Shown: piece by piece, positions 1 through 17,494 of the stretch
Numbering within the stretch: the stretch's first letter is position 1
How the letters are laid out: every line of letters begins with the position of its first letter
NCBI GenBank assembly: GCA_020850325.1
Contig: JADZEW010000035.1
Location: 124,001 to 188,000 of the forward strand
DNA: 64,000 nt
Source of the DNA: Methanoregulaceae archaeon
GTDB lineage: Bacteria > Armatimonadota > Fimbriimonadia > Fimbriimonadales > Fimbriimonadaceae
Reading direction: 5' to 3'
The notes under the pieces: generated by a model
What the model was told of the DNA's origin: nothing
What the model saw: the letters and a program-made list of their open reading frames with translations, nothing else
Database searches by the model: none
Translations under genes and position numbers: made by a program

Positions 1-797
1 TATGACTTTGATGCCAGCCTCCGGTTCGTACGAAACGCCCACCACAGCACGCCGGCCGAAAGAGCCAAGAAGAGTACGACGAACACTGCGGCGATTGGAC
101 CCGGCAACAGACTCGCGGCGAGCGGAATGCCAACCAATGACGCGACCCCGGCGAGCCAGGCCGCGACGAGACGTCGGGCCGAAGATGTCCCTAACCACGC
201 CCCCCGGGCGTGATCCAGCAGGATCGGCGCTCGGCAGCCCTTGCACCAGAGTTGCCCCGGCGGATTGGAGGATGAACACTCGAGGCACGTCATCGGGTGA
301 TGATGATGGGGCTCAAGCTGGTTCTTCCAGGCACGCATCTCGCGGAGGTCGTCGGCAACGACGACTTGAGGGTACTGCGAAAGCGTCGGCTCAGCGATCG
401 CCACGGCGTGCGCAACCCAGCCGCGCTGATACGCAATGCGTGCAATGCGCATGGTCGCCCCCAGATTCCCGGGCCGAAGGCTAAGCTGTTCGTACGCATT
501 CTCCATCGCTTGGATATCCAGCCGCGCAAACTCGCGCTTCGTATGATAACTCCGCAAAGCCGGAAACGTGGCCACCATCGAAAACACCGCAAGCAAAAGG
601 AGCGGTGTGAGCTGCTCATTGGGTTGTAGCATGATCGCTACCCCCACCACGATGCCCAGCGCCGCGCCCAGCAATCCAATCCCGGCATCGATTTCGCCCA
701 TGATGCTCCAGCTGATGAGGGAGAACACCCACACCGAGATCGGGAGCCACACCGCGCATCCCATCAGGCTCATGATCGATCCCGGGGAGTCAATCAT
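1..797 (-). CDS. Membrane protein with cytosolic helical part and zinc ribbon (3' end outside window)
   Basis: I read 265 codons without a stop on the reverse strand, starting at ATG 797 five bases after the plsY stop codon; the gene leaves the window at base 1. Visible order: two or three hydrophobic segments in residues 10-80, a helical soluble stretch around residues 85-160 that looks TPR-like, a His cluster (164-167), a zinc ribbon with two CxxC pairs at residues 171-174 and 185-188, then two more hydrophobic helices (210-255). The close spacing makes it the third gene of the nth-plsY unit. Function not recognised. The family could not be named from sequence alone; the zinc ribbon is the most useful handle. 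Confidence 0.72.
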   Translation of the reverse strand, partial: MIDSPGSIMSLMGCAVWLPISVWVFSLISWSIMGEIDAGIGLLGAALGIVVGVAIMLQPNEQLTPLLLLAVFSMVATFPALRSYHTKREFARLDIQAMENAYEQLSLRPGNLGATMRIARIAYQRGWVAHAVAIAEPTLSQYPQVVVADDLREMRAWKNQLEPHHHHPMTCLECSSSNPPGQLWCKGCRAPILLDHARGAWLGTSSARRLVAAWLAGVASLVGIPLAASLLPGPIAAVFVVLFLALSAGVLWWAFRTNRRLASKS

Positions 798-801
798 TGT
801 C

Positions 802-1485
802 TCATTGTAGGACGAATGAGGCCACGACCGTTGCGGCCAATACGACACCTAAGATCAAAGCGATCACGCGAGCCTTGAGCGAAGGTGCCGCATCTTCGCG
901 CGACTTCTGTCCAAGCAGGGGCTCGGTTCCCTGTCGAATCCGCTCGAAGTTGCTTCGGTGACGATACGCCAGATACAGCCCGAAGAAAAGATAGGCCGGA
1001 TAGAGCGTTGATGGATCCTTGACGAGGATCCCGAGCGGCAAGATGCTCACCGCACCCACCACCGAACTGATACTTACGATCATCGTCGCCGAAATCATCA
1101 GCAGGAAGATCGCGGCCGCGCCACCCGCGACGAGCGGTGTCGAGCCGATGAGGGCGCCAAAACCTGTAGCAATTCCCTTCCCGCCTTTAAACCCTAAAAA
1201 TGGGGAAAAGCTGTGGCCGATCACCGCCGCCGCGCCCGCTGCGAACGCATACTCGGTCTGGTTCAGCAGCAGATGGCCGATGTACGCTGGCACGAGGCCC
1301 TTGAGCACGTCGAGCAAAAAGACGACAAACGCGGGGCCCTTGCCGAGGGCTCGCAAGACATTGGTCGCTCCGACATTACCGCTGCCCACCGTGCGGATAT
1401 CGACCCCCTTCGCCCTCGCGATGAGGAAGCCGAACGGGATCGCGCCAAGGAGATATGCCCCGAGGAGCAGCATCGCAAGGGTCAT
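802..1485 (-). CDS. plsY: Acyl-phosphate:glycerol-3-phosphate acyltransferase PlsY
   Basis: Inner-membrane enzyme that transfers an acyl group from acyl-phosphate to glycerol-3-phosphate, the first step of phospholipid synthesis in bacteria using the PlsX/PlsY route. The 227-residue product is hydrophobic throughout and carries the family motifs: GSGNVGATNVLR near residue 35, GHSFSPFLGFKGGKG near residue 90 (glycine-rich loop) and HRSNFERIRQGTE near the C-terminus. It is slightly longer than the usual ~200 residues. Its ATG overlaps the stop of the upstream nth fusion gene by four bases (ATGA), so the two are very likely translationally coupled. PlsX is not in the window. Confidence 0.95.
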   Translation of the reverse strand: MTLAMLLLGAYLLGAIPFGFLIARAKGVDIRTVGSGNVGATNVLRALGKGPAFVVFLLDVLKGLVPAYIGHLLLNQTEYAFAAGAAAVIGHSFSPFLGFKGGKGIATGFGALIGSTPLVAGGAAAIFLLMISATMIVSISSVVGAVSILPLGILVKDPSTLYPAYLFFGLYLAYRHRSNFERIRQGTEPLLGQKSREDAAPSLKARVIALILGVVLAATVVASFVLQ

Positions 1486-3407
1486 GCCCGCAGCCGCTCC
1501 CGCGACTCTTCAACGAGCGCTCGAACAAACTCGACGACCCGCTGATGGTAAGCAAGGAAGGCGTTGGCGTCGTCATATCCAAATGCGAGGGCAAGACGAG
1601 CCAACTTCGCCGGATTCTCCGGCAAGACTTCAGGCGTCAAGCCCAGCCAGACGAGGTGAAGCCGAACCGAGTGGAGGTGGTGCCAGGCTTCAAGCAGCCC
1701 GTCGCGCTCGACCGCATTGACCAGCTGTGCACGAGCCAGGGTCTTGATTCGCTCCGCTCCATCGACCGTCGAGCCGGCTTGAGTCGCCGTCGGGAACCGG
1801 AGTTCATGAATCTGGACGATCCACAGCAAGTCCGCCAAGCTGCCGTAGCCCAATGATACGTGGCGCCATCGGTGCGATGGACGCATCTCTTCCGTCTCCT
1901 GACGATGTCGAACAACGACCAATTCTCGCAACCGCTCTGGCGTGATTGGCAGCGCAAAACCTACTCGGCGTACGCGCTGCGCGGCCTCCACCTCGCCGGC
2001 GATGCTCCTGGCCGAAACCAAGCTGTACCGTTCGCGCATCGGCATGTGCTCGAGCTCGTACTTGAGAAAGGCTTCCCAGGTCCACGCGACCGGTTCGATC
2101 TCAAGCTGGTTAAATCCGTGCCGTCGTAAGCCATCGAACCACGAGCGAAGCAGTGCGGTTTCCTCGACCACCGTCGACGATAGCCCGAAGCAAAGTAACC
2201 GCACCGGCGCGCTGCCCGCGACGGAGCGCATCGCCCATTCCCCGAGAGCAACAGCCTGCAAAGAAAGACTGAGCCGGCGAGCCGCCATCTGAACCAAACC
2301 ATCCAGCACGTCGCTCATGATCGCCCCGGCCGAAGCGGGATCGAACGGTGGTCGGGCGGCGGAGGAGAGCTTGCGTTGCGCCCACTGGGCAACGACGGCT
2401 GGCGAAGCCGTACGGTCCGGTTCCTCAAGAGCGAGAGGCGCCGCCTCGAGCAGGTGAGCGCTCAGGATCGGATCCTCCAAGAACCCAGGAAGCAATGCCG
2501 CTGCGTGCAGCCACACTTCCGCTACCCTCGCGGCAGCAGAGCGAGACCCCTCCAACTGGGGCCAGATATCGGCCGACTGCGGGGCACGATCAACCGACCG
2601 CACGACCGCATGCCCGAACGCGTATTCGGCGAAGCAGCGCTGCTTCCGAGCGGTGTCAAAAACTGGGGTCGGGGCAGAAACCGGCTGGCTCATCCGTGCT
2701 CGGTGGGTCGGCGTAGCCGATGCCGAGTGATGATAGCCGATTTGGTGTTTTGCCGCCCACGGACATCGCGCCAACAGCGGACACGATTCGCAGGCCGGGT
2801 TCCGCGCGTGGCAACGGAGCCTTCCGTGCCGAATCAGCGTCAAGTGAGCTCGCCGCGCAAGCCCTTTCGGGGTCTTCTTCGCGAGCACTTCATGCGACTT
2901 CGCCTCCGAGACGCCCTCGGAAATCCAACCCAACCGTTTGCCAACTCGGTACACGTGAGTGTCGACGGGCAAGACGTCTCGGCCAAATGCAAAAGCGAGC
3001 GTCACGGCGGCCGTTTTTGGCCCCACCCCCGGCAACGACTCCAACCAAGCCAGCGCATCCCGATCAGACAGGGCGGCGAGATGGTCGATCGCATAAGCGC
3101 CCTCTCGTTCGAAGACTTCCGCCAAAGCCGCGCGCATCCGGCGAGTCTTCTCCTTGGCCAGCCCGGCTGGCTTCAGAATCTCCTCGATCGCTTCCGCAGG
3201 AGCGGCCATCAGTGCCTCCCACGAAGGAAACGCTCGCTTCATCTCGGCAAACGCCGGGTACGTGCGCGCATCGTTGGAATGCTGCGAGAGAATACAGCTG
3301 ACCAGTTCATCGAGCGGCGCAAACTCACGATCCGGCACCGCCGGGCCGTCGTAGGCTTCCAACGCTTCGACGACTTCGAGGACCGTCAACCGCGGGCGTG
3401 CCGCCAT
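1482..3407 (-). CDS. nth: Endonuclease III fused to a degenerate GlnE-like nucleotidyltransferase region
   Basis: Residues 1-220 are a complete endonuclease III (base-excision repair glycosylase/AP lyase): helix-hairpin-helix LPGVGPKTA with Lys131, catalytic Asp149 (VDTHV) and a canonical 4Fe-4S loop C199-x6-C206-x2-C209-x5-C215. The frame then continues without a stop for about 400 residues. This part resembles glutamine-synthetase adenylyltransferase GlnE in layout: WEAFLKYELEHMPMRERY..SARSIAGE corresponds to the GlnE segment around 'Y..WERQALL.AR.VAGD', and LGYGSLADLLWIVQ to 'LGPGGIRDIEF.VQ', followed by the helical C-terminal part. The catalytic DxD and the RLRPDG block of GlnE are not visible, so it is probably not an active transferase. 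An internal ATG at 2693 could serve as a separate start for the second part (403 aa). The start at 3407 has TAAGCT 6 nt upstream. Confidence 0.8.
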   Translation of the reverse strand: MAARPRLTVLEVVEALEAYDGPAVPDREFAPLDELVSCILSQHSNDARTYPAFAEMKRAFPSWEALMAAPAEAIEEILKPAGLAKEKTRRMRAALAEVFEREGAYAIDHLAALSDRDALAWLESLPGVGPKTAAVTLAFAFGRDVLPVDTHVYRVGKRLGWISEGVSEAKSHEVLAKKTPKGLARRAHLTLIRHGRLRCHARNPACESCPLLARCPWAAKHQIGYHHSASATPTHRARMSQPVSAPTPVFDTARKQRCFAEYAFGHAVVRSVDRAPQSADIWPQLEGSRSAAARVAEVWLHAAALLPGFLEDPILSAHLLEAAPLALEEPDRTASPAVVAQWAQRKLSSAARPPFDPASAGAIMSDVLDGLVQMAARRLSLSLQAVALGEWAMRSVAGSAPVRLLCFGLSSTVVEETALLRSWFDGLRRHGFNQLEIEPVAWTWEAFLKYELEHMPMRERYSLVSARSIAGEVEAAQRVRRVGFALPITPERLRELVVVRHRQETEEMRPSHRWRHVSLGYGSLADLLWIVQIHELRFPTATQAGSTVDGAERIKTLARAQLVNAVERDGLLEAWHHLHSVRLHLVWLGLTPEVLPENPAKLARLALAFGYDDANAFLAYHQRVVEFVRALVEESRERLRA

Positions 3408-3413
3408 ATAGGA

Positions 3414-3419
3414 AGCTTA
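3414..3419 (-). promoter_or_regulatory. -10 box of the nth fusion gene, leaderless geometry
   Basis: TAAGCT on the reverse strand ends exactly 6 nt before the ATG at 3407, placing the expected transcription start on the A of the start codon. It supports this start for the nth fusion gene. The rnj gene diverges from the same short interval. Confidence 0.5.
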
Positions 3420-3443
3420 CTCAGCAGGTACCCTGCTTGACGC

Positions 3444-5090
3444 ATGGCTGTCGTACAAATCCTTCCTTTAGGCGGTGTCGGTGAGATTGGCAAGAACTGC
3501 ATGGCGATCCGTCAAGGCGATGACATCATTGTCGTCGACGTCGGCCTGTCGTTCCCCAACGAGGAGATGCTTGGGGTCGATATCGTTATCCCCGACTTCC
3601 AGTATCTGATCGAAAACAAAGACCTCGTCCGTGGCATTTTTCTGACCCACGCCCATGAGGATCACGTCGGCTCACTTCCCTATCTGCTCCGTGACGTCAA
3701 AGCCCCGATCTACGCCAGCGAGTTCACCCACGCGCTGATCCGCAGCAAGCTCGAAGAAAAGTCGAACATCAAGGAACTGGACCTGCGCGTGTTCAAGCCG
3801 GGAGACATTATCGAGGTCGGCTCGATGTCCGTCGAGCCGGTGCGCGTCACGCACTCCATCCCCGAGACCACGGCGATGGCAATCCGCACCCAGCACGGCA
3901 TCGTGCTGATGACCGCCGACTTCAAGTTCGACTTCACGCCCATCGACGGCAAGCTGTCGAACATCGCTCGTCTGGGTGAACTGGGTAAGGAAGGCGTCAT
4001 CCTTCTGCTCAGCGACAGCACGAACGTCGAGCGTCCGGGTTGGGGCCCCAGCGAACGCAGTGTCATCCCCGGCCTGCGCAAGGTGTTCAATGAAGCTCCA
4101 GGCCGCGTGTTGCTCACTACCTTCGCGAGCAGCATCCACCGCATGCAGCAGGTGTACGACGTTGCCGCCGAAACGGGCCGAAAGGTCGCGGTTCTCGGTC
4201 GGCGGATGGAACAGAACGTCGATATCTGTTCGCGGATGGGTTATCTGAAGATTCCCCGCGAGACCCGCGTCAACCTCGACGAACTCAAGCTCCTCGATCC
4301 TCGACAGATCGCCATCCTCTCCACCGGCAGCCAAGGTGAGCCGATGTCTGCGTTGGTGCAGATGTCGAAGGAAACCTACGGACGCATGCAGCTCGTGGCC
4401 GGCGACACGCTGATCTACTCGGCTCGCCCCATTCCGGGCAACGAAGCCGCCATTTGGCGCACCGTCAACCGGCTGTTCCGCATGGGGGTGAACGTCGTTT
4501 ACGAATCGGCCACGCCGGTCCACGTGAGCGGCCACGGCTATCAGGAAGAGCTGAAGATGATGATCAATCTGACTCGGCCCTTCTATGTCGCGCCTGTCCA
4601 TGGAGAGCCCCGCCACCAGCACATGTACTGCAAGATGGCCCAGGATATGGGCCACCCTGAGCACCGCATCTTCACCTTAACCGACGGCATTCCCCTCTAT
4701 CTCGATGAGAAAGAGGCCTATTTCGGCGAACCGTTCCCTTGCGGACGGCGCCTGGTGGACTACGGCGGCAACGTCGGCGTAGCCGATGAAGTCCTGCGCG
4801 ACCGCACCACGCTGGCGAAAGACGGCGTGATTACCGTCGCCGTAGCCATCGACCCCGAGCAGGGCGAGATGGTGGGTGACGCGTTCGTGTCGGCCAAGGG
4901 CGTCAATGCTCCGGATTCGCTGTTAGCTCAGTTAGCGGAAGTGGTCACTGACCACGTCGCCAGCCTGCGCGAGCACGAGATCAAGGACGTGGACAAGGTT
5001 CGGCACGATGTGGGCGATGTCGCGCGGCGGTTCATCACCAAGCGGCTCAACCTGCGGCCGATCGTGCTGCCGAATGTCATCGAAGTCTGA
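3444..5090 (+). CDS. rnj: Ribonuclease J
   Basis: Cytosolic metallo-beta-lactamase-fold nuclease with endonuclease and 5' exonuclease activity in mRNA decay and rRNA maturation. The 548-residue protein has the normal family length. It begins MAVVQILPLGGVGEIGKN, carries the zinc site H69-A-H71-E-D73-H74, the beta-CASP region with DSTNVERPG and a later FASSIHRM block, and the motif ATPVHVSGHGYQEE before a C-terminal domain ending around ARRFITKRLNLRP. It diverges from the nth-plsY unit. A possible -10 (TACCCT) lies 9 nt before the ATG. Its presence in a bacterium with an outer membrane is one of the taxonomic hints in this window. Confidence 0.97.
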   Translation: MAVVQILPLGGVGEIGKNCMAIRQGDDIIVVDVGLSFPNEEMLGVDIVIPDFQYLIENKDLVRGIFLTHAHEDHVGSLPYLLRDVKAPIYASEFTHALIRSKLEEKSNIKELDLRVFKPGDIIEVGSMSVEPVRVTHSIPETTAMAIRTQHGIVLMTADFKFDFTPIDGKLSNIARLGELGKEGVILLLSDSTNVERPGWGPSERSVIPGLRKVFNEAPGRVLLTTFASSIHRMQQVYDVAAETGRKVAVLGRRMEQNVDICSRMGYLKIPRETRVNLDELKLLDPRQIAILSTGSQGEPMSALVQMSKETYGRMQLVAGDTLIYSARPIPGNEAAIWRTVNRLFRMGVNVVYESATPVHVSGHGYQEELKMMINLTRPFYVAPVHGEPRHQHMYCKMAQDMGHPEHRIFTLTDGIPLYLDEKEAYFGEPFPCGRRLVDYGGNVGVADEVLRDRTTLAKDGVITVAVAIDPEQGEMVGDAFVSAKGVNAPDSLLAQLAEVVTDHVASLREHEIKDVDKVRHDVGDVARRFITKRLNLRPIVLPNVIEV

Positions 5091-5105
5091 GACGCTGTGG
5101 CGTCT
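5090..5105 (+). terminator. Short hairpin at the end of rnj
   Basis: AGACGC-TGTG-GCGTCT forms a perfect 6-bp stem with a 4-nt loop directly at the rnj stop codon, in the short gap before the convergent reverse-strand gene. There is no clear T run, so a terminator or a 3'-end stabilising hairpin are both possible. Confidence 0.35.
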
Positions 5106-5148
5106 TGTGTCGATGTTTCTCGACTCGACTCGGTTCAGCTTCCGGCCG

Positions 5149-5529
5149 CTATTGGAAAGGTTCGCTCGCGCCCTGCTCCTTGTCGATGTTACGGGTGATG
5201 TCCATGGGCCGGGGGCCGCTCATGGTCACCCGGACCCTATACACTTTCTCGTCTTCGTGCAAGACGGTGAGTTTGCCGCGCCGGCGCATTGGCCCAAGGA
5301 TGGACTCAGGATACTCACGTTCCAAGGCCGACACGAGTGTAGCCATGTCTCGTGGGTACTGCCCTTCTTGTTTAACGTAGGCGTTAACGAGACTCTCGAT
5401 GTTGTTTCGAACATAACGATTGTTCAGGTCCTCTTGACCGAGATAGAGCCAGACGGTCAAGGCTCCGATGAGCACGACCACGGCCGACAACACGATGATG
5501 AGCTTCTTCCGTCGCACTTTGCCAATCAC
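5149..5529 (-). CDS. Small single-span membrane protein, tandem paralogue B
   Basis: 126 residues with a basic N-terminus, one membrane helix (residues ~10-30) and a soluble C-terminal part presumably outside the membrane. It is clearly homologous to the gene immediately upstream: both share KKLII, the block YVKQEG.YP.DM..L, SILGPMRRRG, KLTVLHED..VYR.R..M.GP.P.D and NIDK. The start is GTG 5529, preceded by GAAGGAG and overlapping the upstream stop codon (GTGA). The YP.DM..L stretch recalls the soluble part of pseudopilins, but there is no type IV pilin leader, so I do not assign a function. It is the last gene of the RHS unit. Confidence 0.75.
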   Translation of the reverse strand: MIGKVRRKKLIIVLSAVVVLIGALTVWLYLGQEDLNNRYVRNNIESLVNAYVKQEGQYPRDMATLVSALEREYPESILGPMRRRGKLTVLHEDEKVYRVRVTMSGPRPMDITRNIDKEQGASEPFQ

Positions 5530-5891
5530 TCCTTCAGAAGCTCTTTTTTATCAATGTTCAAAATGACGTCAACAGGCTTCGGACCACCCATGACGAGCCG
5601 GATGCGGTAGACGCTGTCGTCCTCGTGCAATACCGTGAGCTTCGCACCGCGGCGTCGCATCGGTCCGAGGATAGACTCTGAAGACTTGCTCTGATTGGCA
5701 ATGATGAGCGACTCCATATCCTGCGGGTAGCGTCCCTCTTGCTTAACATACCGTCGCACCATGTTAGGCATGTTGATCACGAAACGTTTGCTATCAAGCT
5801 CTTGCTGCATGAGGAACAACCATACGCATGTTGCACCGATCAAGGCGAGCACGATCGATGACACGATGATGAGCTTCTTCCGACGTCGCAT
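5526..5891 (-). CDS. Small single-span membrane protein, tandem paralogue A
   Basis: 121 residues: basic start MRRRKK, one membrane helix (~5-28), then about 90 soluble residues. Over the whole length it matches the next gene downstream, so the pair arose by tandem duplication. The ATG overlaps the stop of the preceding gene (TAATG) and its own stop overlaps the next start, indicating a coupled operon transcribed from the RHS gene. Codon use and base composition are more A+T-rich than in the flanking housekeeping genes. Function not recognised. Confidence 0.78.
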   Translation of the reverse strand: MRRRKKLIIVSSIVLALIGATCVWLFLMQQELDSKRFVINMPNMVRRYVKQEGRYPQDMESLIIANQSKSSESILGPMRRRGAKLTVLHEDDSVYRIRLVMGGPKPVDVILNIDKKELLKE

Positions 5892-6313
5892 TATTGAGCA
5901 ACACGCATTCTCGCGTCCGTCTTCTTTAAGAAGGCAAATGCCGCCCGAATCGCTGGACCAGAGACATCTTGATCAACTACGTAGCGACGACTTCCTCCCG
6001 TCGCAAGTATGAGGTCAACCAGGATACCTTCATCGCGTTTATTAACTGGATGAACATAAGCATTCCAGTTTCGACCGAAGACATGGCACGCCATCATGAA
6101 TCTGCGGTCCGTTGCGACCGGTTCGCTTTGACTCAACTTCCATTCATCGGGCATACTGCGTGCTTCAGACATTGCGATGAGCAAATCTTCAATTGAGTAG
6201 TATTCATCCGTCTCATAACGTCCCTTTATCGACACTCGGCTGTCGACTACTCGCAACCTGACCCAGGGCCAAGCGACCTCCAGGAGGAGACCTTCGCAAA
6301 TCAAGAATGACAT
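5891..6313 (-). CDS. Unknown protein directly behind the RHS gene (candidate immunity gene)
   Basis: 140 residues if translation starts at ATG 6313, which follows the RHS stop codon by 7 nt and has AGGAGG 11 nt upstream, that RBS lying in the last RHS codons. A longer reading frame opens at 6376 but would overlap the RHS C-terminus by 56 bases. The product has no signal peptide or membrane helix. Motifs visible but not assignable include VAWPWVRLRVV, YETDEYYSIEDLLIAM and ATGGSRRYVVDQD. Position after a polymorphic RHS protein is typical of immunity genes; that is inference from location only. Confidence 0.6.
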   Translation of the reverse strand: MSFLICEGLLLEVAWPWVRLRVVDSRVSIKGRYETDEYYSIEDLLIAMSEARSMPDEWKLSQSEPVATDRRFMMACHVFGRNWNAYVHPVNKRDEGILVDLILATGGSRRYVVDQDVSGPAIRAAFAFLKKTDARMRVAQ

Positions 6314-6320
6314 GAGCGAC

Positions 6321-9300
6321 TTATCCTCCTGCATTCCCTGCCCCAGGCGTCTTTCTTGCTGCTGCGCCTCCAACAATAATCACCCCACCAGCTGCGACAC
6401 CAGGTGCAAGAGTGCCTCCGCTAACAATGATGATAACACCACCGACAATTACAAGGCCTGCGACTAAGCCAACCATCCCCCAATCAACTTGCGCCGGACG
6501 ATTGTGCGGCATACGCGTTGGCAGCCTAAGAGGTGGACTTGCGGGGCTGTGGCTCTGTCGTCCAGGAGGCGGACCCGACACAATCTTCCTTTCACCAGCA
6601 TCTTTCTTTCTCCGTTCTTCCAGGCTCTTACCCGCTTCAATGATCTCCTCTTCTGTCAGGTCCGGATTGTTCACTTGTTTATCCTTTCCTTTCGCTTTCT
6701 TGACCTTATCCTTCTTCTTCTTCTGCATCTCGTCATGAATCTGCCGCTGATAATCTTGGTTTGTCTTATACTTTTCAGCTACTGAGTCGCCAAGTCCCTT
6801 TTTTAGCGCCCTGTAGACTGCTTCGCTAAATAGACCTGTTGGATCCACCCACCTCATAGGGTTATTAGACGCATACTGATAGTCACCTCGGCCCGACGAC
6901 ACTGGATCACGACTGATGAAGCCGCCAATGCTTGAATCGTAGTATCTGTGGCCCAGAAGTTTCAAACCAGTGTCAGTGTCTTCCTGGTACCCGAAGCCAG
7001 CCGCGTTCCCAAAGGGACCCTGCCAGGTCCCACTTGAGCCAATCACGTTGCCAAAGGCGTCGTACTCACGGGTTGCCTCTACCGCCTGTGTGGTCGTCCG
7101 CGAATCGGCATTCTTGATCCCTGAGTGCAGATAGCGCGAAGTGCCGCTCCTACGCTCTGAAATGCCTGGCGTGTAGGTCGCCTGGTTGTCTCCCAGGACC
7201 GGGTCAGTCACATACGCGTCATCCCGCCGGTAGTTCCTGGTGCCCCCTGAGTCCGTCTTCGTGATTCGGGAGTCGAGGCCGTTGTACGCATAACTCGATA
7301 CCACAGCCCCCGTTGTTGAGATCAACCGAGATTCGTGGTCCCAGTTGTAGGTGGTTGTGCTTCCACCCACCGTCTGAGTCTTTCGGCGTCCCGCCGCGTC
7401 GTAGGTGAACGACTTCGAGCCGCCGCCCCAAGTCACTGACGTCAGTTTGTCCCCGTCGTCCACTGCGTAGGTTTCTTGGGGTCCACCCAGGATGTTCCGA
7501 TGCGTGCGGTTGCCGTTCGCGTCATAGCCATAGGTGATCTGCCAGGTTGGCGCACCCGACGGCCCCTTGTACTCCCGCGTCAGCTGGTTGATGTTGTCGT
7601 ATTCGTAGGCCGTTGTCACGCCAGCAAGCGTATGAGAGAGCACGTTGCTTGCCGCGTCATACGTGTACGATTGAGCTCTGAGCGTCACAGGACCCGGCTT
7701 CTTGAGCGTGATCGACGTCGGTCGTGATCGGTTGTCATAGGCGACGTCCTCCCACGTGCCGTTTCCGAGCGTCCGCTTGGTCATGCGCCCGGCGTCGTCA
7801 TAGGTCCACGTCGTTACCTCGTTCAGCCAGTTCGTCAGCTGCGACAAGCGACCGAAATTGTCGTACTGGAAGACGGTGTCGCCGTTCCCAGGATCGGTCA
7901 TTCGCGTGCGCTCGCCCAAGCAGTTGTACTGGTAGGTGAGGGGCGCGCCCTGAGGAGAAGCGAAGCTTGTGAGGTTTCCCCACGAGTCGTAGATCCAAGT
8001 CGACGTTCCCGATCCGTCGGTCATGTTCACGGTGTGCCCGTAGTTCGCGTAACTGAACGAGACATCGGGCGTGCCAGGCGGGTAGTTCACCAAAAGGGGT
8101 CGGTCGGATGCATCATAGCCGTAGTAGGTGGTCCATTGTTCCCCCGAGCCATAGGCCCCCCAATAGGCACTCAAGTTGCCATTGGCGTCATATTGCCAAA
8201 GCTCCTTACTACCATCGGGCATATCAAGTCGCTTGACCTCGTCCCGCAGGGTCGGCGTGTAAGTTCGCGTCTTGTCCCGACCATTGTCGATTCGATACAA
8301 GAAGCCCGATGGCGTGTAGAAGTAGTCCTCAGTCTCGCTCTTAGCGTTCGTATAGCTTGAGACGAGGCCGCGATCATCGTAGACCCACGAGTGGACCTTG
8401 CCTCGCTCATCGATCGCTTGAGTGACGTTGCCTTCCGAGTCGTACTGCACCTGCACCGTGGTCGAGCCGCCCGGCTGCGTGATGGTGACCGGTCTTCCCC
8501 AGTTATCGTAGGCGACCGTCGTCTCATGAAGCAGTTGGTTCTTTGCACTCGTCACCCAACCCATGATGTTTCCAGTCACGTAGGAAGTGCGACTTCGCGG
8601 GTCAAGAACGGTTGCCGCGTTGCCATAGGCATCATAGGTGAAGGAGTAAGGCCGCGAAGTGCTGCCATCGTAGGTTGTCGCGTTCGTGACTTGGCCCGTC
8701 GTACCGCTGACGTTGGCGGTCATCAAGTTCTGATCCGCTGTGCCTCCAGGATAGTCCCGAAACACGCGACTGGTCACCCCATGGGTGTACTCGTAGCCTA
8801 GAGTGCTGGGCGACAGATCGCCATACGAAGAGACCATTTCACTATCGGCATTGTACGTGGCGTAGCTCTTCTCACCGGTGGGACTCGTGGCAGTGGTTAC
8901 GTTCCCATTGACGTCTAGGTTGTACGTGGTCCAGTGCCCGCGCTTGCTACGACTGCTTTGGACGCGGCGGACGGAATCCCAGTTGTACGTTTCGTAAAAG
9001 CCAGCTTCATCCATCACTGACCAAATCTTGCCATTGGAATAGTAGTCTTTACTGATGCGTCCCAATGGATCGGTCATGGACGACCACGTGGAGTTGTAGA
9101 TGAAGTTATAGCCGGTGTAGGGTGGGGCCATGACGACTCCAGGCTCCATGAAGTTGGTCTGGCGGTCAGTTCCATCGTAGGTGCAGGTCCACACCTTGCC
9201 TTTATGGTCCGTCTCGCTGACAACATTGCCGCGCGAGTCATACGTAAACACGCGCTCATGGTCGACACCGTCAAGAGCTGGGCTCTTGAGTTTCCAGAGC

Positions 9301-10439
9301 CGGCCGTTCCCGTCGTATTGTAGTGTCCATTTCCGATTGACGCCCTGAAGACAGTCCCTAACTTCTTTCAAGCGAATGGGACTCTGCTGATAGCCAAAGC
9401 TGATCGTATGACCGTTCGGGCCTGTGATTAGCTTTAATCTTCCAGACTCAAGCTCTCTCGAGATTGTCACGGTGTTGGCAACGTTCCGTCCGATGATCTT
9501 CGTCAGAACGGCTTGGCCGCAGAATGTGGAATCCCCTGGGTCCGGGTGCGAGAACTCATACTTGATGCGGTGCTTGGTCGTGAGCGTGTAGACCTCGGCA
9601 TGGGTCGTGCCGCCCACGGTGATAAATCCATAGATGCCATCTGGGGGATACCACCCTGCCGGTGTCTTATTGTTGTTGTAAACGTAAGGTATCGTCTGGC
9701 CGTTGCCCCAGCGAAGGGCAATGATGTTGCCGTTGCCAAGTGCGCCATGAGGATTCTGGCGGCTCAGCCGAGCCTCAAAGTTACTTGACCACTTGTCTCC
9801 AAACGGTCCCTGAAATGCCGCCTTGCTGTTGTGATTCAGGGACACTCCTAGATTCAGGCCACCGCGGACGGGCAGATTAAACAGTGGGATGCTAGTGTAG
9901 CGATTACCGGTGTTCGAGTTAACGAGGGCCGATACCGAGTTCGAACCACCGCCCGGGAATGCAGACTCCCACGGCAACGGTGGACCACCTCCGATCGTCC
10001 CGTGTCCTCCCTGAGGAGCGGTTGTCGCAGATTCAGCCGAATCAGGTTCGTGTGGTGCGGGTGCCATACTCTCGTGCTGAGCCTCCTCGTACATCGGATT
10101 CATCGGGTCGTAGTTTGGCGGCGCACTAGTCGGGGCCGATGTGAGTGGGAGTTCGCTGGCCGCAGCCTGCTCGGCCTCAAGCTGCCCCAAGATTAGCTTG
10201 GCGTCGCTCGACCAGATGCCATCCTGGGTCGCTTCATCTCTGCCAGGGTTCGGACCGGGATCAACTGCACCTGGACTCTCCGTATAATCGGGTGGCTCAG
10301 CTTGCGTGACCAAACGCAGCCACTCGTAGGTGCTGACCCCAACGACTCGAAGTCCCTCCGCGCTGCACGACAGAGCCATTGTGCAAGCCAGCAGAACGCT
10401 GATTACCCGAAACCACCATCGATTTCTCACGCCACACAT
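6321..10439 (-). CDS. Secreted RHS/YD-repeat protein with variable C-terminus
   Basis: 1372 residues from ATG 10439. The open frame extends further upstream, but this start gives a basic, hydrophobic signal segment (WWFRVISVLLACTMALSC) and sits 10 nt below a good -10 box. After a low-complexity linker and a beta-rich entry region come numerous YD repeats (YDGNGR, YDSRGN, YDASDR and so on) and the RHS core signature: FGYQEDTDTGLKLLGHRYYD, GGFISRDP, Y.YASNNPMRWVDPTGLF. The last ~168 residues after DPTGLF differ from the core: a Lys-rich charged stretch, a Pro-rich stretch, and a Gly-rich hydrophobic segment able to span a membrane twice. No known nuclease, deaminase or ADP-ribosyltransferase motif is visible there. 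A contact-dependent toxin or a surface/matrix protein are both possible. Confidence 0.9.
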   Translation of the reverse strand: MCGVRNRWWFRVISVLLACTMALSCSAEGLRVVGVSTYEWLRLVTQAEPPDYTESPGAVDPGPNPGRDEATQDGIWSSDAKLILGQLEAEQAAASELPLTSAPTSAPPNYDPMNPMYEEAQHESMAPAPHEPDSAESATTAPQGGHGTIGGGPPLPWESAFPGGGSNSVSALVNSNTGNRYTSIPLFNLPVRGGLNLGVSLNHNSKAAFQGPFGDKWSSNFEARLSRQNPHGALGNGNIIALRWGNGQTIPYVYNNNKTPAGWYPPDGIYGFITVGGTTHAEVYTLTTKHRIKYEFSHPDPGDSTFCGQAVLTKIIGRNVANTVTISRELESGRLKLITGPNGHTISFGYQQSPIRLKEVRDCLQGVNRKWTLQYDGNGRLWKLKSPALDGVDHERVFTYDSRGNVVSETDHKGKVWTCTYDGTDRQTNFMEPGVVMAPPYTGYNFIYNSTWSSMTDPLGRISKDYYSNGKIWSVMDEAGFYETYNWDSVRRVQSSRSKRGHWTTYNLDVNGNVTTATSPTGEKSYATYNADSEMVSSYGDLSPSTLGYEYTHGVTSRVFRDYPGGTADQNLMTANVSGTTGQVTNATTYDGSTSRPYSFTYDAYGNAATVLDPRSRTSYVTGNIMGWVTSAKNQLLHETTVAYDNWGRPVTITQPGGSTTVQVQYDSEGNVTQAIDERGKVHSWVYDDRGLVSSYTNAKSETEDYFYTPSGFLYRIDNGRDKTRTYTPTLRDEVKRLDMPDGSKELWQYDANGNLSAYWGAYGSGEQWTTYYGYDASDRPLLVNYPPGTPDVSFSYANYGHTVNMTDGSGTSTWIYDSWGNLTSFASPQGAPLTYQYNCLGERTRMTDPGNGDTVFQYDNFGRLSQLTNWLNEVTTWTYDDAGRMTKRTLGNGTWEDVAYDNRSRPTSITLKKPGPVTLRAQSYTYDAASNVLSHTLAGVTTAYEYDNINQLTREYKGPSGAPTWQITYGYDANGNRTHRNILGGPQETYAVDDGDKLTSVTWGGGSKSFTYDAAGRRKTQTVGGSTTTYNWDHESRLISTTGAVVSSYAYNGLDSRITKTDSGGTRNYRRDDAYVTDPVLGDNQATYTPGISERRSGTSRYLHSGIKNADSRTTTQAVEATREYDAFGNVIGSSGTWQGPFGNAAGFGYQEDTDTGLKLLGHRYYDSSIGGFISRDPVSSGRGDYQYASNNPMRWVDPTGLFSEAVYRALKKGLGDSVAEKYKTNQDYQRQIHDEMQKKKKDKVKKAKGKDKQVNNPDLTEEEIIEAGKSLEERRKKDAGERKIVSGPPPGRQSHSPASPPLRLPTRMPHNRPAQVDWGMVGLVAGLVIVGGVIIIVSGGTLAPGVAAGGVIIVGGAAARKTPGAGNAGG

Positions 10440-10449
10440 CCTCACTGCT

Positions 10450-10479
10450 ATATTAGCCACGGTTTTGCCATTTTGCCAA
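10450..10479 (-). promoter_or_regulatory. Promoter of the RHS unit
   Basis: On the reverse strand TTGGCA (10479-10474) and TAATAT (10455-10450) are separated by 18 nt. The start would fall about 4 nt before the ATG at 10439, so the mRNA would be nearly leaderless. This is one of the clearest -35/-10 pairs in the window. Confidence 0.55.
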
Positions 10480-10656
10480 GGAAAATGCGAGGAAGTTCGC
10501 CCTTCACATAAGCCGTCACGAAGTCCGATGCACCAACGTTGCGGCACCGGGGCGGAGAAGCACATGACCTCGACCACGCAGGTTCTTCGCGGCGTGACCA
10601 GAGTCACCAGGTCTACCGCCCCAATCTGACGCCGCTCTCAACAGGCCCGGATCGGC

Positions 10657-10668: not shown

Positions 10669-11190
10669 ATGCGTTCCGCGCTCGTCGTGTTTGGTTGCAT
10701 TGCCCTCTTGGCGACCATATCTGCCCAAGAGACCCTGAAACGGCGCCCGGTCACCGCCGTGCCCGGAGCAATCACCCAAAGCGAGGCCTCCGTGGTCTTC
10801 TCCCGCATCGAGCGCACCTTCTCACGCCTCACGCGCATCAGCCGCACATTGCCGGCCATGCCCAAGTCGAATAACCCGACGACGCGCGCCGAGGTGTTAA
10901 CCCGCATGATCCGGCTCGTGGACGAGTTTAAGGGCGAGTTCCGATTTACGCCAAAGCGCATTCCCTACGACGGCTCCGCCCTCACCGTCAATGCTCCCGC
11001 CCGAGCCCAAGTGGAGCGCTTGATCGCTTGGGGATTTGTCGCCAAGACCAGCCCCCTCGTCACGGGAGTTCAGGAGACGCTGACGCCCGTTGAGTTCGGT
11101 GACGCAATCGGGCTCTTCATCACTCGAATGGCCGATCTGACCCACACCCCGAGTCCCAAGTGGAGCCCCTACATGTCGGGCGGTAACTAG
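10669..11190 (+). CDS. Secreted protein of unknown function
   Basis: 173 residues with a clear signal peptide (MRSALVVFGCIALLATISAQ). The mature part is basic and helical (FSRIERTFSRLTRISRTLP), followed by a stretch resembling half of an S-layer-homology-like helical repeat (RAQVERLIAWGFVAKTSPLV), but I cannot name a family. The start is supported by TAACAT 6 nt upstream. Its stop codon overlaps the stop of the convergent alkD gene (shared CTAG at 11187-11190). Function unknown; export is the only firm inference. Confidence 0.8.
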   Translation: MRSALVVFGCIALLATISAQETLKRRPVTAVPGAITQSEASVVFSRIERTFSRLTRISRTLPAMPKSNNPTTRAEVLTRMIRLVDEFKGEFRFTPKRIPYDGSALTVNAPARAQVERLIAWGFVAKTSPLVTGVQETLTPVEFGDAIGLFITRMADLTHTPSPKWSPYMSGGN

Positions 11191-11843
11191 GGCTGCGATA
11201 GCGCCCAGTTGATCCACGTTGGCGCAAACGGCGAGATGCACCCCTTCGCCACCGGATAGTCGCGATACACCCCGAGCCTCTCGCCGATTTCGAGGGCACG
11301 ATTCCGGCGAGGTTCGTCCTTGACCCCAATCTCGACGAGGCACCAGTTCATCGCCTCCTGCTTCGCGGGCGGCGCATCCGCCATCTGTGCCTCGATCAGC
11401 GCTAGCAGTTCATCGTGGTCGAGGTTGCCCCCCTCGATCGAGCGGGAGCAGAGCCACCAACCGAGACGGGCGGAGCACATGTGATCGGAATCCCGCCACT
11501 CGTCGCGGAGCGTGTCGGCGTGCTTCGTCTTCAGGATCACGTTCTTGCCGAACCAGTCCGCCAGCTTGGTGAAGTCGATCTCCGACATCATTCTGCGCAG
11601 CTCATCGAGGCTGAGCGCCTTGGGCTTCATGATCAGCGAACCGAGAAGCCGGGCGTCCTGATTCCCCGTCGCCCACAGCTCCAAGCCAAGTTCGTGGTTG
11701 GTCTTGATCTGCTTCGCCAAATCGCGCAGCTCAGAGAGCACCACGCCGAAGTGATTCTCGCCACCGCCGTGCTTGACGTAGATATCGCGCATCTTGGCGT
11801 TCGACTTCGACTTCAGCAGGCCCATGATCTCGGCGCACGTCAT
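11187..11843 (-). CDS. alkD: DNA alkylation repeat protein, AlkD-type DNA glycosylase
   Basis: 218-residue all-helical protein of the DNA_alkylation (HEAT-like) family, which removes N3- and N7-alkylated purines. It shows the family pattern NHELGLELWATGNQDARLL early in the repeats, the aromatic-acidic segment TLRDEWRDSDHMCSARLGWWL in the middle and WCLVEIG followed by a C-terminal helix. The length fits AlkD. The start at ATG 11843 has TAGAAT exactly 6 nt upstream, and the gene diverges from the GH76 gene within 37 bases. Substrate specificity cannot be read from the sequence. Confidence 0.82.
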   Translation of the reverse strand: MTCAEIMGLLKSKSNAKMRDIYVKHGGGENHFGVVLSELRDLAKQIKTNHELGLELWATGNQDARLLGSLIMKPKALSLDELRRMMSEIDFTKLADWFGKNVILKTKHADTLRDEWRDSDHMCSARLGWWLCSRSIEGGNLDHDELLALIEAQMADAPPAKQEAMNWCLVEIGVKDEPRRNRALEIGERLGVYRDYPVAKGCISPFAPTWINWALSQP

Positions 11844-11849
11844 GGACCT

Positions 11850-11855
11850 ATTCTA
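11850..11855 (-). promoter_or_regulatory. -10 box of alkD, leaderless geometry
   Basis: TAGAAT on the reverse strand ends 6 nt before the alkD ATG at 11843. Confidence 0.5.
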
Positions 11856-11868
11856 GTCCGCAGGCGGA

Positions 11869-11874
11869 TATGAT
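11869..11874 (+). promoter_or_regulatory. -10 box of the GH76 gene, leaderless GTG start
   Basis: TATGAT ends 6 nt before GTG 11881. There is no Shine-Dalgarno-like sequence between them, so the box decides the GTG start. The alkD and GH76 -10 boxes lie only 13 bp apart in opposite directions. Confidence 0.5.
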
Positions 11875-11880
11875 GCAAGC

Positions 11881-12891
11881 GTGCTTGCGTTTCTTGCGAT
11901 GACGATGATGGCTCCTCAACCCGACCTCGCCGCGAGAGGTCGTGAAATGCTCGCCACGATCCGGCGTGAGTATTACTTGCCCGAAAGCAAGCTGTATTCC
12001 GAGCGCCCCGACCGCAAACAGCCCGCGTTCAACTGGGGAGTCGGCGTTCTGCTGTCGGCGCTCAATGCCGCCGCCCGGCACGACACCACCTACGTGCCTT
12101 GGTTGCGAGAGTACGCCGACGCGAGCCGCGTGTACTGGAACCAAGGCGGCTACGATGTCCTCCCCGCCCCCAAACCGCTCGACCGCTACTATGACGACAA
12201 CGCCTGGATGGTGCTCGCGCTCGTCGAAACCCACGAAGTGCTGGGCGATCGCAAGTATCTGGACTGGGCGAAGGAAGCGCTCGACTTCACGCTGACCGGC
12301 GAGGCCAAAGATGGCGGCATCTACTGGCGTGAGTCCGATCGAGCGTCTCGCAATACCTGCAGCAACGCCCCTTCGGCCGCAGCATGTTTGGCCGTCTACG
12401 AGCACACCAAAGATGCCAAGCTCCTCGCGAAAGCCCGCGAACTCTATGACTGGACTCGCAAGCATCTTCAAGACCCTGCGGACGGCCTCTACTGGGACAA
12501 CCTCCACAATAATGGGAAGCTCGACAAGACCAAGTGGAGCTACAACACGGCTCTCATGATCCGCACCGCCGCCGAGTTGCGGGCCATCGATCCCGCCTAT
12601 GCCGACGGGAGTGACCTCAAACGGATGATCGACGCCTCCCACCAGCGGTGGTTCGCCAAGAGTCGCTACGACGACGTTGGCCGCTTTGCCCACCTCTTGC
12701 TCGAGAGTTGGCTCATTGCCGGAGAGCAGAAGCCCGACTACTTAACCGCGACCGAGAGTCTTCATAAGTTGCGAAGCGGCAAGGGCTTCTTGCCCTCCCA
12801 TTGGGGCCGGGATGCAGCCGACGATAATCCCGAGCTACTCGATCAAGCCGCGTTCGCCCGCACGTGCTTCGTCTTGGCCGTCAAAAAATAA
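11881..12891 (+). CDS. Glycoside hydrolase family 76 protein (alpha-1,6-mannanase type)
   Basis: 336 residues with a short hydrophobic N-terminus (residues 1-12), perhaps a weak signal peptide. The (alpha/alpha)6-barrel features of GH76 are visible: FNWGVGVLLSALNAA, the paired acidic residues in RYYDDNAWMVLALVETHE (catalytic Asp-Asp of the family), GGIYWRESDRASRNTCSNAP, and LYWDNLHNNGKLDKTKWSYNTAL. GH76 enzymes cut alpha-1,6-mannan backbones. No transporter or regulator for mannan lies beside it, so it may act alone on external or cell-wall glycans. GTG start fixed by the upstream -10 box. Confidence 0.87.
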   Translation: MLAFLAMTMMAPQPDLAARGREMLATIRREYYLPESKLYSERPDRKQPAFNWGVGVLLSALNAAARHDTTYVPWLREYADASRVYWNQGGYDVLPAPKPLDRYYDDNAWMVLALVETHEVLGDRKYLDWAKEALDFTLTGEAKDGGIYWRESDRASRNTCSNAPSAAACLAVYEHTKDAKLLAKARELYDWTRKHLQDPADGLYWDNLHNNGKLDKTKWSYNTALMIRTAAELRAIDPAYADGSDLKRMIDASHQRWFAKSRYDDVGRFAHLLLESWLIAGEQKPDYLTATESLHKLRSGKGFLPSHWGRDAADDNPELLDQAAFARTCFVLAVKK

Positions 12892-12922
12892 GCGAGCCGA
12901 GGCAATGCCCCGGCCCGCGCTT
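12890..12922. terminator. Imperfect hairpin between convergent genes
   Basis: AAGCG...CGCTT with inner CCG/CGG and GGC/GCC pairs forms a long interrupted stem around an AAT loop just after the GH76 stop, facing the convergent Spy-like gene. It could serve either strand; no T run follows on the plus strand. Confidence 0.4.
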
Positions 12923-12946
12923 GCATCTCCCTGAGATGAGTTCGAA

Positions 12947-13441
12947 TTAGCGGCCGCCGCCGCCCTTGCCGCCCTTGTTAGTGCCGCCCTTGTTCGCGCC
13001 ACCCGCGGCTCCACCGCCGGCTCCGCGCTCCTTGCGCATCTTCTCGACTGCCGCTTTCATGAGCTTCTCATAGTCGGCCTTCTGCTTCGGCGTAAGGATC
13101 GCCATCAGCTTGTCGTTCCAAGTCTTCATCTTGGCCGTGAACTGCGCCCGATCCGGCTGCTTGCCCGACTTCTGAGCAGCTTCGCGGGTCTTCATCATAT
13201 CGTCGCGCATCTGCTTCGTCGTCGCTTCCCACTTCTGCTTCTGAGCCGCGGTGAGGTTGAGCTTCTTGAGAATCTCCTCCTGCATCTGGCCTCGCATGCG
13301 GAACTGCTGGCCACCCTGGCCCTGACGACCCTGCTGTCCACCTTGGCCGCCATTCTTGGGACCCGCACTCTGAGCAACTGCCGAAGTCGCCAACGCCATG
13401 ACTGCCGCAACCGCGACCAATCCAGTCAAAACCTTTTTCAT
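12947..13441 (-). CDS. Spy/CpxP-like periplasmic LTXXQ-type protein with Gly-rich tail
   Basis: 164 residues from ATG 13441 (GGAGG 7 nt upstream; an adjacent ATG lies three bases earlier). Signal peptide MKKVLTGLVAVAAVMALATSAVAQ. The mature chain has a Gly/Gln-rich linker, two LTxxQ-type motifs (LNLTAAQKQKWE and LTPKQKADYEKL) flanking a charged helical region, and a Gly/Lys-rich tail. Proteins of the Spy/CpxP type are periplasmic chaperone-like or envelope-stress sensors. The low-complexity flanks are unusual in length. It is separated from the MlaF gene by 63 bases and may have its own promoter. Confidence 0.75.
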   Translation of the reverse strand: MKKVLTGLVAVAAVMALATSAVAQSAGPKNGGQGGQQGRQGQGGQQFRMRGQMQEEILKKLNLTAAQKQKWEATTKQMRDDMMKTREAAQKSGKQPDRAQFTAKMKTWNDKLMAILTPKQKADYEKLMKAAVEKMRKERGAGGGAAGGANKGGTNKGGKGGGGR

Positions 13442-13504
13442 CATCTTGCCTCCATGAGAGTTCACACGCAAGGACGCCGCAACGCCCCGCATGTTCACCA
13501 CGCG

Positions 13505-14236
13505 CTAGAGAGATTTCGCTTCGGCCCGGTCAATTAGTTCCCGAATCGCCGGATGATCGGACTCGCGGAACTTATCGGGAGCCCCGTCGAACACGAGTTT
13601 CCCCTTATCCAAAAAGGCAACCCGATCCGCAACGCGAAACACCGAGGACACATCGTGGCTGACCACCAAACTCGTTACGCCGAGGTCTCGCCGGAGCTCG
13701 ACGATCAGTTGGTCGATCGTGTACGCGGTCACCGGATCGAGTCCGGTTGTGGGCTCGTCGTAAAGGATGACTCGGGGCTTCAAAGCAAACGCCCGCGCGA
13801 TGCCAACTCGCTTCTTCATGCCGCCGCTCAACTCGCTGGGCAGCCGATCGGCTGCTTCCACAAGTCCAACTCGCTCAAGAAGCTCTGCCGTTAGGGTCTC
13901 CGCTTCCTTGATGGACAACGCCCGACGGCGTCTAACTCCGAAGAGAACATTGTCTCGAACGCTGAGGAAGTCGAACAGTGCCGCCGACTGGAAGACCATG
14001 CCCATGTGCTGGCGAGCCTCTTCCGGGTTCGCGAGAACATCGATGCCATCCACTTCGATCTTGCCCTCTTCGGGAACAATCAGCCCGGAAATGCACTTGA
14101 GCAGCGTCGTCTTGCCGCCCCCCGAACTGCCCATGATCGCCACGATCTGGCCGCTCTCGATGGGAAGATCGATAGCATCGAGCACGGTGCGCCCGTCGAA
14201 TCGTTTGGTTACGCCTTCGACGGCAACCGACGGCAT
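13505..14236 (-). CDS. ABC transporter ATP-binding protein, MlaF-like
   Basis: 243-residue nucleotide-binding subunit: Walker A GSSGGGKTT (~residue 37), Q-loop in MGMVFQSAALFDFLSV, signature LSGGMKKRVGIARA, Walker B VILYDEPTTGLDP and switch His in VVSHD. The phrase FQSAALFDFLSVRDNV is characteristic of the MlaF/Ttg2A subgroup that powers phospholipid transport between the membranes. No MlaE permease, MlaD or MlaC gene is in the window, so it is an orphan subunit here. It starts 3 nt after the AraC-family gene and is probably co-transcribed with it. Confidence 0.88.
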   Translation of the reverse strand: MPSVAVEGVTKRFDGRTVLDAIDLPIESGQIVAIMGSSGGGKTTLLKCISGLIVPEEGKIEVDGIDVLANPEEARQHMGMVFQSAALFDFLSVRDNVLFGVRRRRALSIKEAETLTAELLERVGLVEAADRLPSELSGGMKKRVGIARAFALKPRVILYDEPTTGLDPVTAYTIDQLIVELRRDLGVTSLVVSHDVSSVFRVADRVAFLDKGKLVFDGAPDKFRESDHPAIRELIDRAEAKSL

Positions 14237-14239
14237 GGG

Positions 14240-14929
14240 CTACTCAGAGGCCGAAATCGCCATGCTGCCTCGCCGCATGCTGGAGGGAGGTGCCGAGAAC
14301 CGTTGGGCAAACGCCCGGGTGAAGTGAGCGACGCCCGTGAATCCCACCTCGATCGCAACTTCACTGACCGGCATATCGCCCTCGACCAGAAGTTTGCGCG
14401 CCCTTTCCAACCGCAAGGCCATTAGGTATTTGCGGAACGGCTGCCCCGTCGCCTGGCGGAACAGGTGTCGAAAGTGAGACGTGCTGAGTCCGACCTCACG
14501 CGCGACCCGATCGTCATCGAGCTGCCGGTGCAGATTCTGATCGATGTACGCGAGCGCGCGATCCATCATGATCTTCGTCGGGGTCAGGCTCGGATCGAAC
14601 ACCGGAGCCAACACTTGCTCGACGATTTCACGAGCGATTTTCCCGACCTCGACTGCATCATCGGTCTTGTCGATGGCCCGGGCCGCCTCAAGCTGAACCC
14701 GGTGCATTTCTCGCGCGCCACCCATCTCCATGGTCGCCGCCGTTACCATGGCGATGAACATCAGCGCCGCGCCTCGCGCTTCGTCCAGATCGCTCGTCCG
14801 CACAATGCTCTGTTGCAACTGATCGAGCGCCTTGACCATGCGCAAGCGGTTTGCGCAACGGACGATGCCCCCGATCTCGCTCAGGGCGATTCCGCCGGCA
14901 TCGGAATGAAACGGACAACCTTGTGCCAT
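14240..14929 (-). CDS. AraC-family transcriptional regulator
   Basis: 229 residues. The C-terminal ~100 residues form the double helix-turn-helix of AraC/XylS proteins: DDDRVAREVGLSTSHFRHLFRQ, GQPFRKYLMALRLERARKLL and PVSEVAIEVGFTGVAHFTRAF. The N-terminal half (residues 1-115) is a helical domain starting MAQGCPFHS that I do not recognise as a standard AraC sensor. It lies between a peptide-binding lipoprotein gene (10 nt upstream) and the MlaF-like gene (3 nt downstream) in one unit, so it may regulate this operon. Confidence 0.87.
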   Translation of the reverse strand: MAQGCPFHSDAGGIALSEIGGIVRCANRLRMVKALDQLQQSIVRTSDLDEARGAALMFIAMVTAATMEMGGAREMHRVQLEAARAIDKTDDAVEVGKIAREIVEQVLAPVFDPSLTPTKIMMDRALAYIDQNLHRQLDDDRVAREVGLSTSHFRHLFRQATGQPFRKYLMALRLERARKLLVEGDMPVSEVAIEVGFTGVAHFTRAFAQRFSAPPSSMRRGSMAISASE

Positions 14930-14938
14930 CTATTCTTT

Positions 14939-16546: not shown

Positions 16547-16591
16547 AACGTGGAGTTTATACCCTTGGTTCGGGCGCATCCGCGATACCAG

Positions 16592-16597
16592 TACAAT
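16592..16597 (+). promoter_or_regulatory. -10 box of the TPR gene, leaderless GTG start
   Basis: TACAAT ends 6 nt before GTG 16604. TTCGGG lies 17 nt upstream as a possible -35. This spacing identifies the GTG as the start and discards the much longer upstream reading frame that overlaps the divergent lipoprotein gene. Confidence 0.55.
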
Positions 16598-16603
16598 TCA
16601 GAG

Positions 16604-17473: not shown

Positions 17474-17494
17474 CGGGTATCCTCTGCCCCGTTC

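What the first reader, a model, noticed from the sequence alone, without database searches (positions are those of the whole stretch)
5149..10439. RHS island with membrane-active-looking variable tip and coupled small genes
The region is visibly more A+T-rich than the flanks. The RHS core ends at DPTGLF and the ~168-residue tip has a Lys-rich stretch, a Pro-rich stretch and a Gly-rich double hydrophobic segment, and no known toxin motif. Three small genes follow with start/stop overlaps. If the tip is a pore-forming toxin, the soluble gene or the two membrane paralogues may protect the cell. This is the best candidate for an undescribed toxin-immunity type in the window.
Basis: partly seen in the sequence, partly recalled or inferred. 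Interest (0 to 1): 0.6.

Follow-up and report, generated by a model that had tools for sequence, protein, structure and literature searches.

The report
RHS toxin cassette with membrane-seeking tip
A bacterium of the phylum Armatimonadota carries a recently gained or lost cassette that looks like a secreted antibacterial toxin with an interchangeable, probably membrane-inserting tip and two kinds of candidate protective proteins; it is a new example of a known weapon type rather than a new type of system.

Summary
Window 5149-10439 (-) encodes an RHS protein (DUF6531 plug, YD repeats, core ending DPTGL|F), a 168-residue tip and three small genes, all overlapping (14, 1 and 4 nt), in the most A+T-rich stretch of the window. 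A sister genome (~88% nucleotide identity) lacks the cassette: its flanks are collinear and meet there. Across the family (Fimbriimonadales) the core is conserved but tips are exchanged; of 81 tips some match known toxins (Ntox50, Tox-REase-9, ribonuclease, GIY-YIG, SitA6) and 79 are followed by a closely placed small ORF. This tip belongs to an unnamed family found in eight genomes: helical N-domain, linker and, in most, a Gly-rich hydrophobic C-terminus seen in no other tip sampled. No canonical glycine zipper is present. Wherever the tip is intact, a small soluble gene follows directly; here it is the best immunity candidate. The two membrane paralogues do not travel with this tip; a weak relative overlaps the stop codon of a different RHS tip, so they are orphan immunity genes or a second, envelope-side layer, as in EsxX/ExiAB/ExiCD. 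Membrane damage by the tip is inferred, not shown. New member of a known kind.

The parts
6321..10439 (-). RHS protein (1372 aa from ATG 10439; ORF open from GTG 10607): signal-peptide-like N-terminus, DUF6531 N-plug, YD repeats, RHS-associated core C-plug
   Evidence: Pfam DUF6531 and RHS_repeat, NCBIfam YD_repeat_2x and Rhs_assc_core; translation
6825..6920 (-). C-plug with two DP motifs (RDPVSSGRGDYQYASNNPMRWVDPTGL), expected site of self-cleavage after DPTGL (coordinates approximate)
   Evidence: sequence; by analogy with the Rhs aspartyl protease of Tse5 (PMC10684867); the Asp-Asp spacing here is 21, not the 22-23 described there
6321..6827 (-). variable tip (168 aa): N-terminal helical domain (tip residues 1-80), Pro/Arg-rich linker, Gly-rich hydrophobic C-terminus (two stretches)
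   Evidence: homologues in other RHS genes; AlphaFold pLDDT 89-94 for residues 1-40 and about 84-92 for 61-80, under 50 after 105; hydropathy
5891..6334 (-). small soluble gene (147 aa from ATG 6334), candidate cognate immunity protein; overlaps the RHS stop by 14 nt
   Evidence: position equivalent to the soluble genes that follow the tip homologues
5526..5891 (-). single-pass membrane protein 1 (121 aa); its ATG overlaps the previous stop (TAATG)
   Evidence: weak relatives in RHS loci of G005
5149..5529 (-). single-pass membrane protein 2 (126 aa), 56% identical to 1; GTGA overlap
5091..10650 (.). accessory island: absent in the sister genome G001, where RNase J and the gene at 10669 are about 45 bases apart
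   Evidence: blastn: window 1-5086 and 10713-17817 collinear with G001:C170 at 87.8% and 88.7%

Best explanation
This is an exchangeable RHS polymorphic-toxin cassette of a Fimbriimonadales (Armatimonadota) bacterium. The RHS protein carries a signal-peptide-like N-terminus (Sec export, inferred), folds as a YD-repeat shell (inferred from family), and releases its 168-residue tip by self-cleavage after DPTGL (inferred). The tip has a basic helical N-domain and a Gly-rich hydrophobic C-terminus that probably inserts in the target cell's membrane and depolarises it (inferred). The overlapping soluble gene (5891-6334) most likely binds the tip in the producer's cytoplasm before export. The two membrane paralogues most likely are immunity proteins too: either orphan immunity genes kept from another RHS tip, or an envelope-side layer against returning toxin.
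For: Core conserved with exchanged tips in a family of 85 genomes; among 81 tips there are matches to Ntox50, Tox-REase-9, ribonuclease, GIY-YIG, M91 peptidase, YkuD and SitA6, so these cores carry toxins; 79 of 81 tips have a small ORF nearby downstream, 53 within 10 nt or overlapping. The same tip family occurs in G055, G046, G083, G023, G006, G088 and G077, each intact one followed by a soluble gene. All five tips with a strong hydrophobic stretch in the last 70 residues belong to this family. Empty site in a sister genome. Precedents: Tse5, an Rhs protein with a pore-forming tip (PMC9637101, PMC10684867), and EsxX with soluble plus membrane immunity (PMC12744356).
Against: No toxicity data. 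The canonical glycine-zipper pattern is absent (0 matches; shuffles average 1.7). In G077 the tip lacks the hydrophobic half, but that copy is next to transposase-like remains; in G023 the C-terminus is shorter. The soluble genes following the tip homologues are not detectably homologous to each other except G055/G083, though this is also true of most other homologous tip pairs here. AlphaFold gave no confident structure for the hydrophobic half or for the soluble protein, folded alone. Known immunities to depolarising toxins are often membrane proteins (Tsi5, CdiI-EC93).
Confidence: 0.55

Rival explanations
1. The toxic activity lies in the tip's conserved N-terminal helical domain (residues 1-80), and the hydrophobic C-terminus serves for translocation or anchoring.
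For: The N-domain is the part predicted with confidence and carries many of the invariant residues shared by the four closest copies (Y20, H31, E33, NPDL, E61); it survives in G077, where the hydrophobic half is gone.
Against: No known catalytic motif or fold; about 80 residues of mostly charged helices; G077 looks like a disrupted remnant; CDI ionophores also pair a variable N-terminal entry domain with a C-terminal membrane domain (PMC11630599).
Confidence: 0.2
2. The two membrane paralogues, not the soluble gene, are the cognate immunity to this tip.
For: Membrane-acting Rhs and CDI toxins usually have membrane immunities (PMC9637101, PMC11630599); the genes overlap and so look co-transcribed, and about a third of the first downstream genes in this clade are membrane proteins.
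Against: None of the other tip-family loci has them; a weak relative in G005 overlaps the stop codon of an RHS gene with an unrelated tip.
Confidence: 0.15
3. The tip is a non-toxic structural or anchoring end (for example a membrane stop-transfer end) and the cassette is an adhesin or surface protein.
For: Hydrophobic C-termini can anchor exported proteins; no toxicity data exist; no secretion machine is assigned (T6SS VipA absent).
Against: The same core carries known toxin domains at the same junction in other genomes; the downstream gene is coupled as for the other tips; the cassette is accessory and of atypical composition.
Confidence: 0.1

Closest known systems
Tse5/Tsi5 of Pseudomonas aeruginosa (Rhs effector with pore-forming tip; PMC9637101, PMC10684867)
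   Same: DUF6531 plug, YD-repeat shell, C-plug with two DP motifs, hydrophobic tip of about 150-170 residues, adjacent candidate immunity gene
   Different: Tse5 is delivered by a T6SS and its immunity Tsi5 is a two-TM membrane protein; here a signal-peptide-like N-terminus, no T6SS VipA gene in the genome, a soluble first gene plus two single-pass genes; no tip sequence relationship was tested directly
EsxX with ExiAB and ExiCD of Staphylococcus aureus (PMC12744356)
   Same: membrane-targeting toxin encoded near soluble candidate immunity and a pair of membrane proteins
   Different: LXG/T7SS toxin, not Rhs; has a canonical glycine zipper, absent here; ExiCD are polytopic, here single-pass; two soluble partners there, one here
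CDI ionophore toxins, group of CdiA-CT EC93 (PMC11630599)
   Same: two-part tip with an N-terminal domain and a C-terminal membrane domain; immunity proteins diverge fast
   Different: delivered by CdiA, five-helix ionophore domain, two-helix membrane immunity
WapA/Rhs polymorphic toxins and SitA6 lipoprotein toxins
   Same: exported YD-repeat carrier (WapA, from general knowledge); several tips of this clade match the SitA6 model TIGR02269
   Different: this tip matches no such model; delivery route unknown

Membership tests
Rhs polymorphic toxins | DUF6531 plug, YD repeats, RHS-associated core ending in DPxG | tested here: met
   DUF6531 E 4.6e-07, RHS_repeat 1.4e-50, Rhs_assc_core 5.4e-16; DPTGL at the end of the core
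Rhs polymorphic toxins | conserved core with exchanged C-terminal tip in relatives | tested here: met
   homologous cores with 81 tip sequences, some known toxins
Rhs polymorphic toxins | immunity gene directly downstream of the tip | tested here: inconclusive
   a coupled gene is present and this is the rule for the clade; protection is untested
Rhs polymorphic toxins | aspartyl self-cleavage motif DPXG-X18-DPXG | tested here: inconclusive
   two DP motifs with Asp-Asp spacing 21, the first DPVS and not DPXG; similar variants occur in this clade; cleavage untested
Rhs polymorphic toxins | tip is toxic to bacteria | not testable with these tools
   needs expression
Glycine-zipper depolarising toxins (EsxX, TelE type) | (G/A/S)xxxGxxxG or GxxxGxxx(G/S/T) in the hydrophobic segment | tested here: not met
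   0 matches in the last 60 residues of this tip; 0-1 in the homologues
T6SS Rhs effectors (Tse5 type) | delivery by a T6SS | tested here: not met
   no T6SS_VipA (PF05591) match in the genome (98% complete), with E. coli positive as control

The most novel reading that the evidence does not exclude
A Sec-exported Rhs protein with a new membrane-inserting tip family whose producer is protected in two compartments: a soluble protein sequesters the hydrophobic tip before export and a pair of single-pass membrane proteins blocks insertion from outside, a counterpart of EsxX/ExiAB/ExiCD in an unrelated delivery system and phylum.
Probability: 0.15. Interest if true: 0.65.

Novelty: new member of a known kind. 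Interest (0 to 1): 0.36.

Why it matters
If the inference holds, it adds an unnamed tip family and several unnamed candidate immunity families to the Rhs arsenal. The library searches run here showed no Rhs paper on this phylum, and the genome has no T6SS VipA gene, so delivery is open. The sister genome with the empty site is a ready comparison for how whole RHS cassettes come and go.

Tried and rejected
Glycine zipper: tested and not met. Fold of the tip's N-domain: Foldseek best E 3.5 and VIA-align best Z 5.5, not informative for a helical bundle. PDB profile search: the best match, E 0.003 to a pore-forming lysin component, covers only the hydrophobic half and may be compositional; not used. 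AlphaFold on the soluble protein alone: pLDDT 38, not used. Homology of the soluble gene to the genes after the other tips: none detectable (z up to 2.5); as a calibration, most homologous tip pairs at 30-45% identity in this clade also show no detectable similarity downstream. Pilin-like reading of the membrane paralogues (YxKQxGxYPxD): Pfam gives no significant match and the other weak genome matches include a true prepilin, so only a resemblance. Probable chance matches to the hydrophobic stretch alone in other families were disregarded. Border repeats of the island: none of 8 nt or more found. The alignment-based scan of named genomes failed with four rows and worked with two.

Full report
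OBSERVATION. The minus strand of 5149-10439 holds an RHS gene and three small genes as described. The RHS ORF is open from GTG 10607, but ATG 10439 begins MCGVRNRWWFRVISVLLACTMALSC, a signal-peptide-like stretch, and is the better start (lipoprotein or not is undecided). The genes overlap by 14 nt (RHS/soluble), 1 nt (TAATG) and 4 nt (GTGA), read from the DNA. The island is among the two lowest in G+C of 586 windows of its size (0.559; mean 0.613, sd 0.020), lowest in the tip and small genes.

THE ISLAND IS ACCESSORY. In the same-genus genome G001, whose RNase J is 99% identical, window 1-5086 and 10713-17817 are collinear at 87.8% and 88.7% nucleotide identity, and the RHS cassette is absent; RNase J and the next gene are about 45 bases apart there. 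None of the eleven other RNase J loci inspected (about 1.5 kb flank) has an RHS gene beside it. G001 has RHS genes elsewhere with different tips, one HNH-like and one resembling bacterial toxin 50 by inspection. Gain here or loss in G001 cannot be told apart.

THE CORE DELIVERS TOXINS IN THIS CLADE. Matches to the RHS protein occur in 129 of 151 genomes of the phylum sampled, and to the C-terminal core in 74 of 85 of the family. Named records place two tip carriers among Fimbriimonadales and an unnamed pond bacterium. I collected 83 tips from fetched loci; the 81 of 60 residues or more were scanned. Pfam found Tox-REase-9 (2), Ntox50, Ribonuclease, GIY-YIG, Peptidase_M91, YkuD (3) and DUF2380 (4; NCBIfam likewise gives 4 members for the SitA6 polymorphic toxin model). 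79 of 81 have an ORF of 60 aa or more starting within -60 to +250 nt of the tip stop, 42 overlapping; 27 of these products are predicted membrane proteins. The ORF choice is mechanical and a few are doubtful. That these RHS genes are polymorphic-toxin carriers is therefore well supported; that this particular tip is toxic is by analogy.

THE TIP. Homologues: G055, G083 and G046 (35-41% identity), and more distantly G023, G006, G088 (another family of the order) and G077. All but G088 and G077 are visibly fused to an RHS core; in G077 a transposase-like end precedes the tip and the hydrophobic half is missing. Layout: helical N-domain with the pattern RYxxDxxFRxxIHRExxxxK...NPDLxxEEI, a Pro/Arg linker, then VDWGxVG and one or two hydrophobic stretches. 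With eight sequences AlphaFold gave pLDDT around 90 for most of the N-domain and under 50 for the hydrophobic half. Of 81 tips only five have a 19-mer at Kyte-Doolittle 2 or more in the last 70 residues, and all five belong to this family. The canonical glycine-zipper pattern is absent.

THE SMALL GENES. In every intact tip-family locus the first gene downstream is small and predicted soluble: 147 aa here, 150 in G055, 153-172 in G046, about 147 in G023, about 184 in G088, 288 in G006; in G083 it is decayed but recognisable as a relative of the G055 gene (z 16.8). Otherwise they are not detectably homologous; across the clade, most homologous tip pairs at 30-45% identity likewise show no detectable similarity downstream, as expected if immunity evolves faster than toxin. 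Single-sequence prediction suggests a repeated beta-beta-beta-alpha order in the window protein, but at pLDDT 38 it is only a hint. The membrane paralogues are found in no other of 151 genomes by single-sequence search; G005 has two weak relatives in RHS loci (phmmer E 0.0088 and 0.057; z 4.2), one of which overlaps the stop codon of an RHS gene with an unrelated, unnamed tip, while the other is broken. This puts the family in the immunity position of another tip and argues that the pair here may be orphan immunity genes.

MECHANISM. Most likely: export through Sec (inferred), encapsulation and self-cleavage as for Rhs proteins (inferred from PMC10684867), then insertion of the hydrophobic tail in the target membrane (inferred). 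The soluble gene would keep the tip harmless before export, as ExiAB does for EsxX; the membrane pair would be orphan immunity, or act from the envelope side as ExiCD does (PMC12744356). No T6SS VipA gene is present in the genome.

VERDICT. A real, accessory RHS toxin cassette with an unnamed tip family and unnamed candidate immunity genes; new member of a known kind. The pore-forming claim remains a reasonable inference that a simple expression test would settle.

Noticed in passing
window 1482-3407 (-): One ORF joins an endonuclease III-like part (HhH-GPD, 4Fe-2S) to a C-terminal part matching GlnD_UR_UTase, an unusual fusion; a missed gene boundary or sequencing error was not excluded.
   Followed up: partly
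L076 2562-10421 (G000 contig C1) and L077 1393-3662 (G000 contig C8): The same genome has another RHS locus with three successive tip plus small-gene modules, and a second copy of its first module on another contig (tip 86%, downstream gene 78% identical).
   Followed up: partly
L043 5053-5942 and L157 783-5000 (G005): G005 RHS arrays hold duplicated 173-aa genes, a gene with a sub-threshold SUKH-1 match, and a tip without Pfam match (VVVVRGSQ...GHNS...LCDS) that reminded me of caspase-like proteases; not tested further.
   Followed up: partly
four tips of alignment A8: Four RHS tips match the SitA6 lipoprotein toxin model TIGR02269/DUF2380, which suggests toxin exchange between Rhs carriers and the myxobacterial Sit system.
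   Followed up: no
L073 793-1150 (G083): The gene after the G083 tip is broken by stops and frame changes while its tip frame stays open, with a different region beyond it; relevant to whether the tip is toxic without its partner.
   Followed up: no
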